Origin: Nocardia speluncae NBRC 108251 | Lineage (GTDB): Bacteria; Actinomycetota; Actinomycetes; Mycobacteriales; Mycobacteriaceae | Direction of reading: 5' to 3' | Assembly: GCF_001613245.1 (NCBI RefSeq) | Contig: NZ_BDBZ01000002.1 | Location: 62,001 to 126,000 of the forward strand | Length of the DNA: 64,000 nucleotides | Shown: one piece after another, positions 36,749 through 43,071 of the stretch | Position numbering within the stretch: the stretch's first letter is position 1 | Layout: each line of letters starts with the position of its first letter | The notes under the pieces: model-generated | What the model was told of the DNA's origin: nothing | Seen by the model: only the letters and a program-made list of their open reading frames with translations | Databases searched by the model: none | Made by a program: the position numbers and the translations under genes

Positions 36749-38218
36749 ATGAGCACGCAACCTGTTGGGGACGGCCGACACCGCGTCGTAGTGATCGGAT
36801 CCGGATTCGGCGGCCTGTTCGGGACCAAACACCTCAAGCGAGCCGACGTCGACGTCACGCTCATCTCCAAGAGCACAACCCACCTGTTCCAGCCGCTGCT
36901 CTACCAGGTCGCCACCGGAATCCTGTCGGTCGGCGAGATCGCGCCCGCGACCCGGCTGGTACTCCGGAAACAGAAGAACGCCCGGGTGCTGCTGGGCGAG
37001 GTCACCGATATCGACCTGACGCAACGCACTGTCACCTCGGTGCTACTCGGCGAATCGACCGTGACCCCCTACGACAGCCTGATCGTCGCGACCGGCGCAC
37101 AGCAGTCGTATTTCGGCAACGACCAGTTCGCCACCTTCGCCCCCGGCATGAAAACCATCGACGACGCCCTCGAACTACGCGGCCGTATCCTCGGTTCCTT
37201 CGAACAGGCCGAGGTCGCGCGGACGCAGGAGGAACGCGACCGGCTGCTCACCTTCGTGGTGGTGGGCGCCGGCCCCACCGGGGTCGAGCTGGCAGGCCAG
37301 ATCGCCGAACTGTCCGACCGCACACTCGAGGGCACATTCCACAACATCGACCCGCGCGATGCCCGGGTGATCCTGGTCGAAGGCGCGGGTGCGGTCCTCG
37401 GCCCCATGGGGCCGAAGCTGGGCGGCAAGGCGCAGCGCCGGCTCGAATCCATGGGTGTGGAGATCCAGTTGAACGCCCTGGTGACCGATGTCGACGCGCA
37501 CGGTGTGACGGTGAAGGACAAGGACGGCACCACCCGGCGGATCGAATCCGCCTGCAAGGTGTGGTCCGCCGGGGTGCAGGCCAGCCCGCTGGGCAAGATG
37601 CTGGCCGACCGTTCCGCCGGGACCGAAGTGGACCGCGCGGGCCGGGTGGTGGTGGAACCGGACCTCACCATCAAGGGACACCCCCACGTCTTCGTCGTCG
37701 GCGATCTGATGTCGGTACCCGACGTCCCCGGGCAGGCCCAGGGCGCGATCCAGGGCGCCACCTACGCCGCGAAGCAGATCAAGGCCGAGGTTGCCGGTAA
37801 CCAGACCCCGCAGGACCGGCGGCAGTTCAAGTACTTCAACAAGGGCAGTATGGCGACGATCTCGCGGTTCAGCGCGGTGTGCCAGGTGGGGAAGCTGGAA
37901 TTCGGCGGATTCATCGCCTGGCTGGCCTGGCTGGCGCTGCACCTGTACTACCTCGTCGGCTACCGGAGCCGGATCATCACGATCATCCAGTGGTTCGTGA
38001 CCTTCCTCGGCCGCGGCCGCGGCCAGATGGCGGCCACCGAACAATGGATCTTCGCGCGCCTCGCACTGGAGGCGGTGTACGGGGACAGCGAGGAGGGCGA
38101 GGAGATCGTGCGCGGTGCGGCGGGCCGCCGGCCGCCCGGCTCGTCACAGGCCAACCCCACCGGCAACGGGGTCCCGGCCACTGCCGAGAAGTCCGGGGGC
38201 GATCGTAAGGTCGGCTGA
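36749..38218 (+). CDS. ndh: Type II NADH dehydrogenase
   Basis: 489 residues. Non-proton-pumping NADH:menaquinone oxidoreductase, a main entry to the respiratory chain in mycolata. Dinucleotide motifs: VVVIGSGFGGLFGTKHL (FAD, residues 13-29) and LTFVVVGAGPTGVELAGQIAEL (NADH). The FAD-ribose site VFVVGDLMS and a quinone-site patch GAIQGATYAAKQI follow. The C-terminus has an amphipathic and hydrophobic region (FIAWLAWLALHLYYLVGYRSR) that anchors it to the membrane. The ATG has GAGGAG 6 bases upstream. Single gene between the P450 and the tandem secreted-protein genes. Confidence 0.93.
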   Translation: MSTQPVGDGRHRVVVIGSGFGGLFGTKHLKRADVDVTLISKSTTHLFQPLLYQVATGILSVGEIAPATRLVLRKQKNARVLLGEVTDIDLTQRTVTSVLLGESTVTPYDSLIVATGAQQSYFGNDQFATFAPGMKTIDDALELRGRILGSFEQAEVARTQEERDRLLTFVVVGAGPTGVELAGQIAELSDRTLEGTFHNIDPRDARVILVEGAGAVLGPMGPKLGGKAQRRLESMGVEIQLNALVTDVDAHGVTVKDKDGTTRRIESACKVWSAGVQASPLGKMLADRSAGTEVDRAGRVVVEPDLTIKGHPHVFVVGDLMSVPDVPGQAQGAIQGATYAAKQIKAEVAGNQTPQDRRQFKYFNKGSMATISRFSAVCQVGKLEFGGFIAWLAWLALHLYYLVGYRSRIITIIQWFVTFLGRGRGQMAATEQWIFARLALEAVYGDSEEGEEIVRGAAGRRPPGSSQANPTGNGVPATAEKSGGDRKVG

Positions 38219-38294
38219 CCGGCCGACATCCCAGGCGCCACCCCCCTCCGAAGCTAATATCGGGCAAACCGATAATTTCCGGAGAAAGGCGACC

Positions 38295-39398
38295 ATGGGT
38301 AAGCACAGAGCTCCCGGTGTCACCCGGCGCGCTACCGGATCGGTCGTCGCGGCGGGCGCGGTACCGCTCATCGCGACACTGATCGGCGCCGGTACAGCCA
38401 ATGCCGAAGCACTCCCCGCTCCACCCTCGATCCCGGCACTCCCTTCTCTGCCCGCGCTCCCGGCGGGCCTCTTCCCCCCGGCTCCCGCGCCGGCCGTGGA
38501 AAATGCGGCAATCCCCACCACACCCGGCCCGGCGCCGCTCACTACACCCGACGCCCCGGCGCCCACCGCTATGGCCACGAATGTTTTCACCAGACCGGCC
38601 GCGCCGGTGCCGGCCCGGCCGGTAACACCTCCGCTCTCCGCACCGCTCGCGGACCTGTTCACCGTGCCTGCCGACTCGGCACCGGAATCGGCCGATGCCG
38701 GCGCACCGGCTCCCGCTGCTCAGCCGCCGGCAACACCGGCCGCGCCGGACCCGGTCACGGCGGCAACCACCGCCGTCCAGGATGCTGTCCATTCGGTGAC
38801 CGATACGATCAGCGCGGCTGCGGCACCGCTGATTCGGCCCGTCCCCGCCATCGCACCGCCTGCCGCGCTCGCCGATCCGGGCGCGGCGCTGCTGTCCGCA
38901 CCTGCTTTTCGCACGCCCCGAGGCTCCCTGCCGGCGGCGCAGCCGGGCGTCCCCGAGGCGCCGATCGACGCACCGCCCGGCACACTGCGGATCGGTGATT
39001 TCGTGATCGCCGTGCCGTTCGATGCCGCCCCGGTCAACCAGGGCGCCGCGCAGGCCGAGGACCAGGTGTCGACCTACCTCGATTCGATGGGAGTGGAGCC
39101 CGGCCGGTCGGATCGGCTCGCCGCCCAGACCCTGGGTAACGCCGTCATCGGCGCCGGCATCGGCAACGCCGTCGCCGCGCCGGTCGCCATACCGTTCGCA
39201 ATGCTCGGCGCCGCACTGGGATTCGTGGCGGGGATACCGTTCCTGCCGACCGGCCTCGTCGTCGGCCCGGTCCTCGGCGCCGCGGTCGGGTACGGCATCG
39301 TCGCGGTGCCCGCCACGATCGCCGGGGCCGCACTCGGGGCGGCGTACGGCGTGACCGACGGTTTCACCACACCACTACTCGGCGGGGCCCAGCCGTGA
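38295..39398 (+). CDS. Secreted Pro/Ala-rich protein with glycine-rich hydrophobic C-domain (tandem copy 1)
   Basis: 367 residues from an ATG with GGAGAAAGG upstream (the leader is shared with copy 2). Basic n-region GKHRAPGVTRRATG, hydrophobic core VVAAGAVPLIATLIGAG, cleavage after ANA-E (about residue 39). The middle (40-230) is Pro/Ala-rich and disordered. A conserved domain starts near 230 (IDAPPGTLRIGDFVIAVPF ... GAAQAEDQVSTYLDSMGVE). Three or four small-residue hydrophobic segments follow (IGAGIGNAVAAPVAIPFAMLG, LVVGPVLGAAVGYGIVAVPA), glycine-zipper-like. It may insert in or line the cell envelope. Function unknown. Confidence 0.82.
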   Translation: MGKHRAPGVTRRATGSVVAAGAVPLIATLIGAGTANAEALPAPPSIPALPSLPALPAGLFPPAPAPAVENAAIPTTPGPAPLTTPDAPAPTAMATNVFTRPAAPVPARPVTPPLSAPLADLFTVPADSAPESADAGAPAPAAQPPATPAAPDPVTAATTAVQDAVHSVTDTISAAAAPLIRPVPAIAPPAALADPGAALLSAPAFRTPRGSLPAAQPGVPEAPIDAPPGTLRIGDFVIAVPFDAAPVNQGAAQAEDQVSTYLDSMGVEPGRSDRLAAQTLGNAVIGAGIGNAVAAPVAIPFAMLGAALGFVAGIPFLPTGLVVGPVLGAAVGYGIVAVPATIAGAALGAAYGVTDGFTTPLLGGAQP

Positions 39399-39840
39399 GC
39401 ACAGTCCGGTAGGCGGCTCGAGTCCCGCAGCCGGGCACCGGGGAGTGCGGCCTGTGCGTCCACAAGAACAGCGGTTCTGGTGTGGGTACCCGAGCCGGTA
39501 TCTCGGGTCGATACCGCGTGCCCGTAGTCGTTCCGAATTCCGATGAGTAGCCTGCCGAATCCGGCCCGGCTCGGCCGGATTCCGATCTGCCACGGCCGGG
39601 CGCCGGGTTCCCGGGTCATCGTTCGCCGGCATGAGGAATCGAGTCCGTCCGATCGATCACACAACCAGCGGAGCGGTCACTGCCGACCGGTACCGCAAAC
39701 CGACCGCTATCGATGTGCTGCGCAGTCTCGCTACCTGTTCAGGAACGCATTGCCCAGCAGTTTGAACAGGACGATCCCATCCGTCGCGCGTTCCGGTCCG
39801 AATGTCTGGCAAACCGACAATTTCCCGGAGAAAGGCGACC
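39399..39840. other. Intergenic spacer between tandem paralogs
   Basis: 442 bp. Open frames here lack ribosome sites and protein-like composition. It holds one clean hairpin (39557-39582). Separately, the 7-bp repeats CTGTTCA (39735-39741) and TGAACAG (39763-39769) are complementary. Its last bases are the leader repeated from copy 1 (GGCAAACCGA then TTTCC-GGAGAAAGGCGACC). Confidence 0.6.
39557..39582. terminator. Hairpin between the tandem secreted-protein genes
   Basis: Arms GAATCCGGCC (39557-39566) and GGCCGGATTC (39573-39582), 10-bp perfect stem and 6-base loop, 159 bp after copy 1's stop. Possible terminator or attenuator; no T-run. Confidence 0.45.
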
Positions 39841-40704
39841 ATGGGTAAGCACAGAGCTACCGGTCCGGCTCGGCGGGCTGCGGGATCGGTGGTAGCGGCG
39901 GGCGCGGTACCGCTCATCGCGACACTGATCGGCGCCGGTACGGCCAATGCCGAAGCACTCCCCGCTCCACCCGCGTCACCCCCGATTCCCGCTCTACCGG
40001 CGAATCCGCTCCAGCCGGCATCCGCCACACCCGATCCGGTCCGCGATCTCACCACCGTTGTACACGATGCGACCCAGGTGGCAGTACGGTCCGCTACCGA
40101 TACGTTCGGGATGGTGGCGGCACCGTTGCTTCCCGCCCCGCCGGCTCCGGCGCCGGCGGCGGTCGCCGAACCGGTCCCGACGCCGGCGACCCGGCAGTTG
40201 CCCACACATGCCTACCTCGCTCCGCAGGGCGAGTTGCACGCGCCGATGCCGGTGGCACCGGTAGCACCGATCGAGGCGCCGCCCGGCAAACTCCGGATCG
40301 GCAACGTCGTCATGGATGCGCCGCCGTTCGATGTCCGGGAGATCAATACCGGCGCCGCGCAGGCGGAAGCGCAGGTGGCGACCTTCTATGATTCGGTGGG
40401 CGTGGAGCGCAGCCGGTCGGACCGGATGGCCGCACAGACCGTGGGTTCGGCGGCCATCGGCGCATCGGTCGCCAATACGCTGGCTTCCCCGATCGCGACC
40501 ACCTCTGCGATGGTGGGGGCGGTCGCCGGGCTGATCTCCGGTGTTCCGTTCCTGCCGATCGGTCTCGTCGTGGGCCCGGTGCTCGGCGCCGCCATCGGCT
40601 ACGCGGTGATCGCGGCACCCGCGATGGCCGTCGGGGCGGCGGTCGGCGGGGCGGTCGGCGCGGCCGAAGGGTACACCGCCGCACCGTTCGGCGCGGCCCC
40701 GTAG
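39841..40704 (+). CDS. Secreted Pro/Ala-rich protein with glycine-rich hydrophobic C-domain (tandem copy 2)
   Basis: 287 residues, a shorter paralog of copy 1. Same start context (GGAGAAAGG, then GACC ATGGGTAAGC) and same signal peptide (GKHRATGPARRAAG, VVAAGAVPLIATLIGAG, ANA). The Pro-rich middle is about 80 residues shorter and unrelated in detail. The conserved domain aligns: IEAPPGKLRIGNVVMDAPPF, TGAAQAEAQVATFYDSVGVE, then hydrophobic ANTLASPIATTSAMVGAVAG and LVVGPVLGAAIGYAVIAAPA. It is closed by a 15-bp stem terminator. The pair looks like a recent lineage-specific duplication. Confidence 0.82.
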   Translation: MGKHRATGPARRAAGSVVAAGAVPLIATLIGAGTANAEALPAPPASPPIPALPANPLQPASATPDPVRDLTTVVHDATQVAVRSATDTFGMVAAPLLPAPPAPAPAAVAEPVPTPATRQLPTHAYLAPQGELHAPMPVAPVAPIEAPPGKLRIGNVVMDAPPFDVREINTGAAQAEAQVATFYDSVGVERSRSDRMAAQTVGSAAIGASVANTLASPIATTSAMVGAVAGLISGVPFLPIGLVVGPVLGAAIGYAVIAAPAMAVGAAVGGAVGAAEGYTAAPFGAAP

Positions 40705-41038: not shown

Positions 41039-42145
41039 GTGCGCGCCGATATCGTGATCTGCGGTCTGGGCCCGGCCGGCCGAGCGCTCGCCTACCGATG
41101 CCTGGTGCGGGGTATGTCGGTGATCGTGGTCGATCCGAATCCACGGCGGCACTGGCGGGCGACCTACGCCGCCTGGACCGACGAACTCCCGGCCTGGCTG
41201 GCCGGCACCACCCTCGCGGCAACGGTCGCCCTGCCGCGCGCCTACGGCCTGCGCGCGCACACGATCCCCCGCTCGTACTCGGTGCTCGACACGGGGCGCC
41301 TCCAGCGCAGCCTCGACATCACCGGAGCCACCGTGCTCACCGGCCGGGCCACCAGGCTCGACCGGCACATCGTCACCCTGGATACCGGCCGGACGTTGCA
41401 GGCCGAGCGTGTGATCGACGCGCGCGGCCTGCGACGCCGGCCCGGCCGGGCCGAACAGACGGCCTACGGCCTGATCCTCGACGATCCCGGACCCGACGAG
41501 CCGGCGCTGTTCATGGACTGGCGTGCCGATAACGGCGCTGACCCCGGCTCGCCACGGTCGTTTCTGTACAGGATCCCGATCGGCGGCGACCGCGTCCTTT
41601 TCGAGGAGACCTGCCTGGTGGGGGCACCACCGATCGACCTCGGTGAACTCGCCCGCCGATTGCGCTGTCGATTACGAGCTCGCGGCATACCGGTACGCGG
41701 CGACGAACCGGTCGAACGGGTCCGCTTTCCGGTCGTGGGCGGCGCCCCGCGGCCGGGCCGATTCGGTGCCGCCGGCGGGTACTTGCATCCGGCCACCGGA
41801 TACAGCGTGGGGGCGGCTCTGGCCGCGGCCGGCGATATTGCGGACGGTCACACGCGCGTGCCGAATGCGGCCCGAGCCGTATATCGCCTGCGCCGCGCCG
41901 GGCTCCGGGCCTTGCTCGCGCTGCCGCCGAGTGAACTTCCCGGCTTTTTCGACGCGTTCTTCGAGCTCGATATCAACCTGCAATACGCCTATCTGTCCGG
42001 ACGCGCCGACTTCGCAGGCACCGTCGCCGCGATGACCAGGCTGTTCGCGGGAGTACCTCCCGGTACCCGCGCGCGGCTGGCCGCTGCGACACTCCATCTC
42101 CCGCCGCTCTCGCCCCCGGGGTCCGGTTCGGTCATCATGGAGTGA
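41039..42145 (+). CDS. Lycopene-cyclase-like FAD-dependent cyclase
   Basis: 368 residues from GTG 41039, where the dinucleotide fold begins (DIVICGLGPAGRALAYR). Features of CrtY/CrtL-type cyclases: early FAD loop, ATYAAWTDELPAWL (the family's WxDE patch region), IDARGL, a mid-protein FMDWRA, the YRIPIGGDRVLFEETCLVG block and GAAGGYLHPATGYSVG. The family converts lycopene ends to beta-rings without net redox. No other carotenoid gene is near, so it may act in trans or on another isoprenoid. Its stop shares one base with the ku start (TGATG). Confidence 0.8.
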   Translation: MRADIVICGLGPAGRALAYRCLVRGMSVIVVDPNPRRHWRATYAAWTDELPAWLAGTTLAATVALPRAYGLRAHTIPRSYSVLDTGRLQRSLDITGATVLTGRATRLDRHIVTLDTGRTLQAERVIDARGLRRRPGRAEQTAYGLILDDPGPDEPALFMDWRADNGADPGSPRSFLYRIPIGGDRVLFEETCLVGAPPIDLGELARRLRCRLRARGIPVRGDEPVERVRFPVVGGAPRPGRFGAAGGYLHPATGYSVGAALAAAGDIADGHTRVPNAARAVYRLRRAGLRALLALPPSELPGFFDAFFELDINLQYAYLSGRADFAGTVAAMTRLFAGVPPGTRARLAAATLHLPPLSPPGSGSVIME

Positions 42146-43071
42146 TGCGGTCAATCTGGAAAGGCTCGATCGCGTTCGGGCTGGTGAACGTCCCCGTGAA
42201 GGTCTACACCGCCACCGAGGACCACGACATCCGGTTCCACCAGGTCCACGCCAAGGACGGCGGCCGGATCAAATACGACCGCGTCTGCACCGTCTGCGGG
42301 CAATCGGTGAAATTCGCCGATATCGATAAACAGTACGAATCACCGGAAGGCGAGAAGGTCGTGCTCACCGACGACGATTTCGCCAAACTACCGGTGGCCG
42401 AGAAACACGAGATCCCGGTTCTGCAATTCGTCCCGTCGGAGCAGATCGATCCGATCCTCTACGACAAGACCTACTATCTGGAGCCGGATTCGACCACACC
42501 CAAGGCCTATGTGCTGCTGGCCGCCACACTCGAACGTATCGACCGCACCGCCCTCGTCCATTTCACGCTGCGTCAGAAGACCCGGCTTGCCGCGATGCGA
42601 GTGCGCGACGGGATGCTGGTGCTGCAGACGCTGCTGTGGCCGGACGAGGTGCGCTCGGTATCGTTCGAATCGCTGGAGGAGGCCACGGCGCCCCGGCCGC
42701 AGGAAATAAAAATGGCCGAAACCCTTGTCGAGTCGATGTCCGACGATTTCGATCCCGATCAATTCACCGACGAATACCAGGTCGAACTGAAACGGTTGCT
42801 GGAGGAAGCGATCGCCAGCGGTGACGGAAAGGTTGCCGAACGCACCGAGGAACCGGCCGAGGAATCCGATGCCGAGGTGGTCGATCTGGTCGCTGCGCTG
42901 CAGCGCAGCCTGGAGGCCAGCGGTGCCCGCGGCGGCGAGCAGTCCGGTACCCGTGGTGGTGGGAAATCCGGCGGTACGAAATCCGCCGGTGAGAAGAGTT
43001 CCGGCGCCGCGAAAACCCGCAAGACCTCCCCGCGTAAAACTGCCCAGAAGCGAACCCGTAAAGGCGCGTGA
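42145..43071 (+). CDS. ku: Ku DNA end-binding protein
   Basis: 308 residues from ATG 42145 in TGATG, overlapping the cyclase stop by 1 base. The Ku core is intact: MRSIWKGSIAFGLVNVPVKVY at the N-terminus, VCTVCGQSVKFADIDKQYE, and LRQKTRLAAMRVRDGMLVLQTL. Residues after about 255 form a Gly/Lys/Arg-rich basic tail (GGKSGGTKSAGEKSSGAAK) as in mycobacterial Ku. It recruits LigD for non-homologous end joining; no ligD lies in the window. Translation-coupled to an unrelated cyclase, probably fortuitous co-transcription. Confidence 0.93.
   Translation: MRSIWKGSIAFGLVNVPVKVYTATEDHDIRFHQVHAKDGGRIKYDRVCTVCGQSVKFADIDKQYESPEGEKVVLTDDDFAKLPVAEKHEIPVLQFVPSEQIDPILYDKTYYLEPDSTTPKAYVLLAATLERIDRTALVHFTLRQKTRLAAMRVRDGMLVLQTLLWPDEVRSVSFESLEEATAPRPQEIKMAETLVESMSDDFDPDQFTDEYQVELKRLLEEAIASGDGKVAERTEEPAEESDAEVVDLVAALQRSLEASGARGGEQSGTRGGGKSGGTKSAGEKSSGAAKTRKTSPRKTAQKRTRKGA

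What the first reader, a model, noticed from the sequence alone, without database searches (positions are those of the whole stretch)
38295..40704. Tandem secreted proteins with Pro-rich stalk and glycine-zipper-like hydrophobic domain
Two adjacent genes encode proteins with near-identical signal peptides, a divergent disordered middle, and a shared C-terminal domain. That domain combines a short beta-like start (IxAPPGxLRIGxxV), a helix (GAAQAExQVxTxxDSxGVE) and several Gly/Ala/Val-rich hydrophobic segments. Exported proteins keeping such segments could insert into or pore the mycolate outer layer. I do not recognise a named family.
Basis: partly seen in the sequence, partly recalled or inferred. 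Interest (0 to 1): 0.75.

Follow-up and report, generated by a model that had tools for sequence, protein, structure and literature searches.

The report
SigK-linked glycine-zipper envelope protein pair
Two neighbouring genes in a Nocardia genome encode secreted proteins of an unstudied family found only in the family of mycolic-acid bacteria; one has a promoter matching the regulator SigK, and close relatives sit inside plasmid DNA-transfer machines, so they probably work in the waxy outer envelope.

Summary
That domain is an internal duplication of a ~34-residue glycine-zipper unit, behind a conserved RIG motif and an amphipathic helix.

No Pfam or NCBIfam family claims the proteins; public annotation calls relatives 'insoluble domain protein'. 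The family was found only in GTDB family f1 (mycolic-acid bacteria): 147 of 301 sampled genomes, none outside f1, none seen in Mycobacterium.

Two lineages emerge. (A) Chromosomal: in Nocardia, one or two copies directly downstream of ndh, mostly with an exact or near-exact SigK-type promoter (CCATCC-N15-CCGAATG) about 40 nt upstream. The exact motif occurs once in this 7.4 Mb genome, before copy 2, and also precedes sigK itself in other Nocardia. (B) Mobile: 42 of 42 carry QPGVT-like motifs, lack the promoter, and many sit in conjugative type IV secretion operons with cutinase and murein hydrolase, including on the demonstrably conjugative plasmid pRErm46.

Most likely these are Sec-exported proteins that insert glycine-zipper hairpins into the mycomembrane. 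Duplication, zipper spacing, restriction, promoter motif and operon linkage are shown. Membrane insertion and function are inferred; AlphaFold gave no usable model (pLDDT 34 and 43).

The parts
38295..39398 (+). Copy 1 CDS (367 aa): signal peptide, long Pro-rich linker, C-terminal glycine-zipper domain
39841..40704 (+). Copy 2 CDS (287 aa): same architecture, shorter linker
38295..38405 (+). Copy 1 Sec-type signal peptide, predicted AxA cleavage after TANA (residue 37)
   Evidence: sequence; 19-residue hydropathy up to 1.88; inference for cleavage
39841..39951 (+). Copy 2 Sec-type signal peptide, almost identical to copy 1
38256..38426 (+). Leader + signal block of copy 1, 90.7% DNA identity to copy 2 (39801-39972)
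39801..39972 (+). Leader + signal block of copy 2, near-identical to that of copy 1
38958..39395 (+). Copy 1 C-terminal domain (RIG motif, amphipathic helix, two glycine-zipper repeats)
40264..40701 (+). Copy 2 C-terminal domain
39126..39236 (+). Copy 1 glycine-zipper repeat 1 (residues 278-314)
39255..39365 (+). Copy 1 glycine-zipper repeat 2 (residues 321-357)
40435..40545 (+). Copy 2 glycine-zipper repeat 1 (residues 199-235)
40564..40674 (+). Copy 2 glycine-zipper repeat 2 (residues 242-278)
39777..39804 (+). SigK-type promoter CCATCC-N15-CCGAATG, ends 36 nt before copy 2; the only exact match in the genome
38226..38254 (+). Degenerate SigK-type site (3 mismatches, ACATCC-N16-CCGAAGC) at the matching place before copy 1
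36749..38218 (+). Upstream neighbour: type II NADH dehydrogenase (NDH-2)-like gene, 76 nt before copy 1; conserved neighbour of the family in Nocardia
   Evidence: enzyme name from sequence recognition, not from a profile search

Best explanation
The pair are Sec-exported envelope proteins of a family restricted to mycolic-acid bacteria. After signal-peptide removal, a Pro-rich linker would span the cell wall. The C-terminal domain (RIG motif, amphipathic helix, then two ~34-residue Gly/Ala helical units with central Pro and GxxxGxxxG spacing, joined by a PFLP.G turn) would insert as a glycine-zipper hairpin into the mycomembrane and oligomerise there. Copy 2, and most chromosomal family members of Nocardia, are predicted to be transcribed from a SigK-type promoter, so they are candidate envelope effectors of the Nocardia SigK system. 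Copy 1 has lost the consensus and is probably expressed otherwise, perhaps by read-through from ndh. The mobile lineage is the conjugation version, probably helping the type IV secretion apparatus cross or anchor in the mycomembrane. Shown by computation: architecture, duplication, zipper spacing, taxonomic restriction, promoter-motif footprint, operon linkage. Inferred: SigK dependence, mycomembrane location, oligomerisation, and any channel or anchor role.
For: Conserved signal peptide and C-domain, hypervariable linker. Duplication: 0 of 200 shuffles reach the observed score. Glycine-zipper periodicity over 105 proteins, and many 19-residue windows with hydropathy 1.6-2.1. Family only in f1. 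Exact SigK-type site once in 7.4 Mb, before copy 2. Of 52 Nocardia chromosomal members 39 have a site within 2 mismatches, 34-52 nt before the start; 0 of 42 mobile members; 0 of 52 for the motif read backwards. The same motif precedes sigK-rskA between whiB and groEL, the locus of PMC7509140, where N. asteroides SigK drives mpt70p. Of 150 listed exact sites in the genus, 26 lie 329-566 nt before the C-domain of a family member (chance ~0.03). Mobile members lie 5.3-12.3 kb from SCO6880-type T4SS genes in at least 25 loci, with cutinase, M23/SLT hydrolase, TraG/VirD4 and TrwC relaxase. One heads the T4SS operon of conjugative pRErm46.
Against: No structural model: pLDDT 33.8 and 42.6. No curated Gly-zipper model is passed (best 24.1 bits against a cut-off of 28.9). 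Nothing shows that the hydrophobic units lie in a membrane rather than packing together or being retained in the plasma membrane. The family is absent from the Mycobacterium genomes seen, which also have a mycomembrane, so it is not essential for one. The SigK consensus itself is from memory; no transcription data were available.
Confidence: 0.5

Rival explanations
1. Periplasmic tether: the protein stays anchored in the plasma membrane by its C-terminal hydrophobic hairpins (or by an uncleaved signal anchor), the Pro-rich part reaches into the wall, and there is no mycomembrane insertion.
For: The hairpin units reach plasma-membrane-like hydropathy (up to 2.1 over 19 residues). The N-terminal hydrophobic segment is almost invariant between species, more than a cleaved signal needs.
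Against: Clear AxA-type c-region (TANA-EA). Restriction to mycolic-acid bacteria is not expected of a plasma-membrane tether.
Confidence: 0.25
2. Secreted membrane-damaging effector or bacteriocin-like protein used against competitors.
For: Hydrophobic Gly/Ala hairpins; two of 26 members show a weak Bacteriocin_IIc similarity (best E 0.005).
Against: Core synteny in Nocardia, fixed place in conjugation operons, no neighbouring immunity gene recognised, and slow C-domain evolution.
Confidence: 0.07
3. Soluble secreted protein whose hydrophobic units pack into an oligomeric core, for example a scaffold protein of the wall.
For: AlphaFold gives no confident membrane hairpin; the annotation name 'insoluble domain' says nothing about membranes.
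Against: Zipper spacing and hydropathy; internal duplication conserved across lineages.
Confidence: 0.15

Closest known systems
'Insoluble domain protein' (annotation name, Rhodococcus and Prescottella plasmids; uncharacterised)
   Same: Same C-terminal domain, exported, Gly/Ala-rich units
   Different: Mobile forms have QPGVT-like motifs after the signal (42 of 42 against 0 of 76), many have ~105 extra C-terminal residues, none has a SigK-type site within two mismatches
Gly-zipper outer-membrane proteins (Pfam PF13441 YMGG, PF13488 Omp)
   Same: GxxxGxxxG spacing in short hydrophobic helices of exported proteins; weak profile similarity in 8 and 4 of 26 members
   Different: Below curated cut-offs (24.1 against 28.9 bits); Pro-rich linker; no lipobox seen in the two signal peptides
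Mycobacterial SigK regulon (mpt83/mpt70 - sigK - rskA)
   Same: Secreted proteins behind a CCATCC-N15/16-CCGAATG type promoter
   Different: Targets here are unrelated to MPT70/MPT83 (fasciclin-type); this genome's sigK ortholog has no rskA next to it
Conjugative T4SS of pRErm46 and related actinobacterial plasmids
   Same: Mobile relatives are first or near-first gene of the operon, with cutinase and murein hydrolase
   Different: The window's pair is chromosomal, next to ndh, with no transfer genes recognised in its neighbourhood
NfpA/NfpB or MspA-type mycolate porins (from memory)
   Same: Exported proteins with paralogs in Nocardia
   Different: MspA-type porins are beta-barrels; this domain is Gly/Ala-rich with helical periodicity, and no profile matched

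Membership tests
'Insoluble domain protein' family | Shared C-terminal domain by profile | tested here: met
   tblastn 51% identity in N. farcinica, 33-50% in Rhodococcus/Prescottella hits, several annotated with this name; alignment A3
Gly-zipper superfamily (Pfam) | Score above the curated cut-off | tested here: not met
   Best 24.1 bits against 28.9; P0002 14.7 against 25
Gly-zipper superfamily (Pfam) | GxxxGxxxG periodicity beyond composition | tested here: met
Gly-zipper superfamily (Pfam) | Helical hairpin in a membrane | tested here: inconclusive
   Helices predicted, but pLDDT below 50 over the hydrophobic units
SigK regulon (copy 2 and Nocardia core copies) | SigK-type -35/-10 motif at promoter distance | tested here: met
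SigK regulon (copy 2 and Nocardia core copies) | A sigK gene in the same genome | tested here: met
   C16 ortholog at 79% identity to a protein that passes NF007228; paralog on C28 at 56%
SigK regulon (copy 2 and Nocardia core copies) | SigK-dependent transcription | not testable with these tools
   No expression data
SigK regulon (copy 1) | SigK-type motif | tested here: not met
   3 mismatches in this genome, 4-5 in close relatives
Conjugative T4SS component (window's pair) | Encoded within a transfer operon | tested here: not met
   Neighbours are beta-lactamase-like, P450, NDH-2, cyclase-like and Ku genes
Conjugative T4SS component (mobile relatives) | Encoded within a transfer operon | tested here: met

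The most novel reading that the evidence does not exclude
A glycine-zipper protein family forms the outer-envelope section of conjugation machines in mycolic-acid bacteria, letting a type IV secretion system cross a mycomembrane, and Nocardia keeps it as a SigK-controlled chromosomal mycomembrane protein, in a genus where many species have lost the usual SigK target mpt83.
Probability: 0.25. Interest if true: 0.85.

Novelty: new variant of a known kind. Interest (0 to 1): 0.62.

Why it matters
Two open questions become testable. First, what SigK controls in Nocardia, where published work found sigK active but mpt83 deleted and rskA truncated (PMC7509140); a conserved candidate target is now named. 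Second, how conjugation machines get through the mycomembrane; a conserved exported zipper protein at the head of those operons is a direct candidate.

Tried and rejected
Curated family searches (Pfam, NCBIfam) and the PDB gave nothing above cut-offs; the weak PDB rows (E 0.012 and worse) match only Gly/Ala-rich stretches. AlphaFold on copy 2 and on the copy 1 C-domain failed (pLDDT 33.8 and 42.6), so no fold search was run. Phage and viral collections hold no relative. Calling the pair itself part of a T4SS was rejected by its neighbours. A one-mismatch scan for further SigK-type sites in this genome gave mostly sites inside genes, 20 in all against 2 control hits, so no wider regulon is claimed. 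A bacteriocin reading was rejected as composition-driven. The pattern CCATCC-N16/17-CCGAATG for SigK is recalled from memory; a full-text search did not find it, and it is supported here only by the site upstream of sigK itself.

Full report
WHAT IS THERE. The window belongs to a Nocardia close to N. carnea/N. flavorosea. Copy 1 (38295-39398, 367 aa) and copy 2 (39841-40704, 287 aa) lie head to tail, 442 nt apart. Each has a 37-residue Sec-type signal ending TANA|EA, a Pro/Ala-rich middle and a shared C-domain. The block from 39 nt before the start codon to residue 44 is 90.7% identical in DNA, against 72% in the C-domain, which points to homogenisation by gene conversion or selection on leader and signal. 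In six closely related genomes the copy 1 protein varies from 364 to 459 aa, because of the linker, while C-domains stay 80-91% identical.

ANATOMY OF THE DOMAIN. Order: PI.APPG.LRIG; an amphipathic helix ending in DSxG..(R)SDR; hydrophobic unit 1; a PFLP.G turn; hydrophobic unit 2. Over 26 diverse members five columns are invariant (four Gly, one Pro). Units 1 and 2 are repeats of one another (hhalign probability 95.4, score 35.6; 200 column shuffles gave at most 21.4; reversed 13.0). Gly-Gly spacing over 105 proteins peaks at i+4, i+8 and i+12 (2.55, 1.74, 1.39 times expectation) and is depleted at several other spacings, which is the glycine-zipper signature. AlphaFold predicted two ~38-residue helices there but with pLDDT below 50, so no fold is claimed.

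WHO HAS IT. In Nocardia 117 of 118 genomes have it, 1-10 copies each. In the GTDB family (f1) 147 of 301 genomes and 18 of 31 genera. In samples of 250 genomes of the order and 346 of the phylum every match was in f1. At least 17 genomes of genus g29 had none; g29 is taken to be Mycobacterium because one of its genomes has 83 PE genes. No phage or IMG/VR contig was found to encode a relative. Public annotation calls plasmid relatives 'insoluble domain protein'; no paper in the library uses that name.

TWO LINEAGES. A tree of C-domains separates a chromosomal group from a mobile group. Chromosomal group: in Nocardia the gene or tandem pair follows ndh, in the order (RecC-like) - beta-lactamase-like - P450 - NDH-2 - family gene(s), across distant species (some species lack the P450, and the simple gene caller missed ndh in a few). 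Mobile group: all 42 members carry QPGVT-like motifs behind the signal peptide, which 0 of 76 others do; many have ~105 extra C-terminal residues. Several of their contigs are 73-330 kb, fitting plasmids. Neighbours are cutinase (PF01083), M23/NlpC/SLT murein hydrolases, FtsK- or TraG/VirD4-type ATPases, a TrwC relaxase, an AAA_10 ATPase and the SCO6880 T4SS marker. At least 25 of 110 non-core SCO6880 loci have a family member 5.3-12.3 kb away and none at 12.3-30 kb; this is a lower bound because the match list was truncated. On pRErm46, shown to transfer at up to 10^-3 (PMC6794481), the member pRERM200c (E 1.3e-49) heads the operon with homologs of cutinase, murein endopeptidase, SCO6880 and the VirB4-like candidate. 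That paper suggests that cutinase and endopeptidase help DNA transfer through the envelope and cites a cutinase promoting conjugation of an R. fascians plasmid. The own genome's third member (contig C47, L004) is of this mobile type and lies directly before a cutinase-family gene, but no T4SS genes were seen in the ~20 kb examined.

THE PROMOTER. Upstream regions of Nocardia chromosomal members share CCATCC-N15/16-CCGAATG. The exact pattern occurs once in the whole 7.4 Mb genome, at 39777-39804, before copy 2 (control pattern 0). Of 52 Nocardia chromosomal members, 22 match exactly, 15 with one mismatch and 2 with two; none of 42 mobile members is within two, and none of the 52 matches the backwards motif within two. 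Chromosomal members of other genera or groups have 1-2 mismatches in four of eight cases. In 118 Nocardia genomes, 26 of 150 listed exact sites lie 329-566 nt before the C-domain of a family member, against 0.03 expected. A second recurrent site class lies between whiB and sigK-(truncated rskA)-groEL; the sigma factor passes NCBIfam SigK (292.7 bits, cut-off 226). This is the locus of PMC7509140, which reports SigK binding sites there, rskA truncated to 81 residues, mpt83 deleted, and N. asteroides SigK strongly active on mpt70p. That the motif is the SigK consensus rests on this plus memory of an earlier SigK paper. In the window's genome the sigK ortholog (C16) has no rskA between it and groEL and no clear autoregulatory site; a second SigK paralog (C28) sits beside a fasciclin-type, MPT83-like gene preceded by CCATCC-N15-CCGAACT. 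If the C16 SigK is free of its anti-sigma factor, copy 2 may be strongly expressed. Copy 1 has only a degenerate site (3 mismatches here, 4-5 in close relatives), so the two copies have diverged in control.

MECHANISM. The most economical reading is an exported protein whose two glycine-zipper units insert in the mycomembrane, with the Pro-rich part spanning the wall. It would serve as an envelope effector of SigK in Nocardia and as a mycomembrane-facing part of conjugation machines in the mobile lineage. SigK dependence, membrane insertion and any pore are inference.

LIMITS.

Noticed in passing
L004 (own genome contig C47:28659-29201); wider locus L062: Third family member of the mobile type, directly before a cutinase-family gene and a lipase-like gene and behind two HTH regulators; no transfer genes seen nearby.
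   Followed up: partly
L165 (own genome C16:145019-145564): sigK between whiB and groEL with rskA apparently lost altogether (only 57 nt between the sigK and groEL ends), a step beyond the truncation described for other Nocardia.
   Followed up: partly
L166 (own genome C28, around 61.5-62.8 kb): Second SigK paralog next to a fasciclin-domain MPT83-like lipoprotein gene, preceded by CCATCC-N15-CCGAACT.
   Followed up: partly
Mobile-lineage proteins, e.g. L104:8607-9977, L111:8905-10122, L080:7994-9505: Repeated QPGVT/QGGVT-like motifs right after the signal peptide in 42 of 42 mobile members and 0 of 76 others; meaning unknown.
   Followed up: partly
Nocardia cassettes L082-L087, L093, L099-L101: Recurrent accessory cassette: HTH regulators - family gene - cutinase - lipase-like - small membrane protein - regulator-like ATPase - MoxR-like ATPase - metalloprotein-like gene, without recognised T4SS genes; possibly a separate mobile system.
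   Followed up: no
window 38295-39398 against L005-L010: Copy 1 linker is hypervariable in length between close species (whole protein 364-459 aa) while the rest is constrained.
   Followed up: no
window 41114-43071: A cyclase-like FAD protein gene directly followed by (touching) a Ku-like DNA-end-binding gene; conserved next to the pair in close relatives.
   Followed up: no
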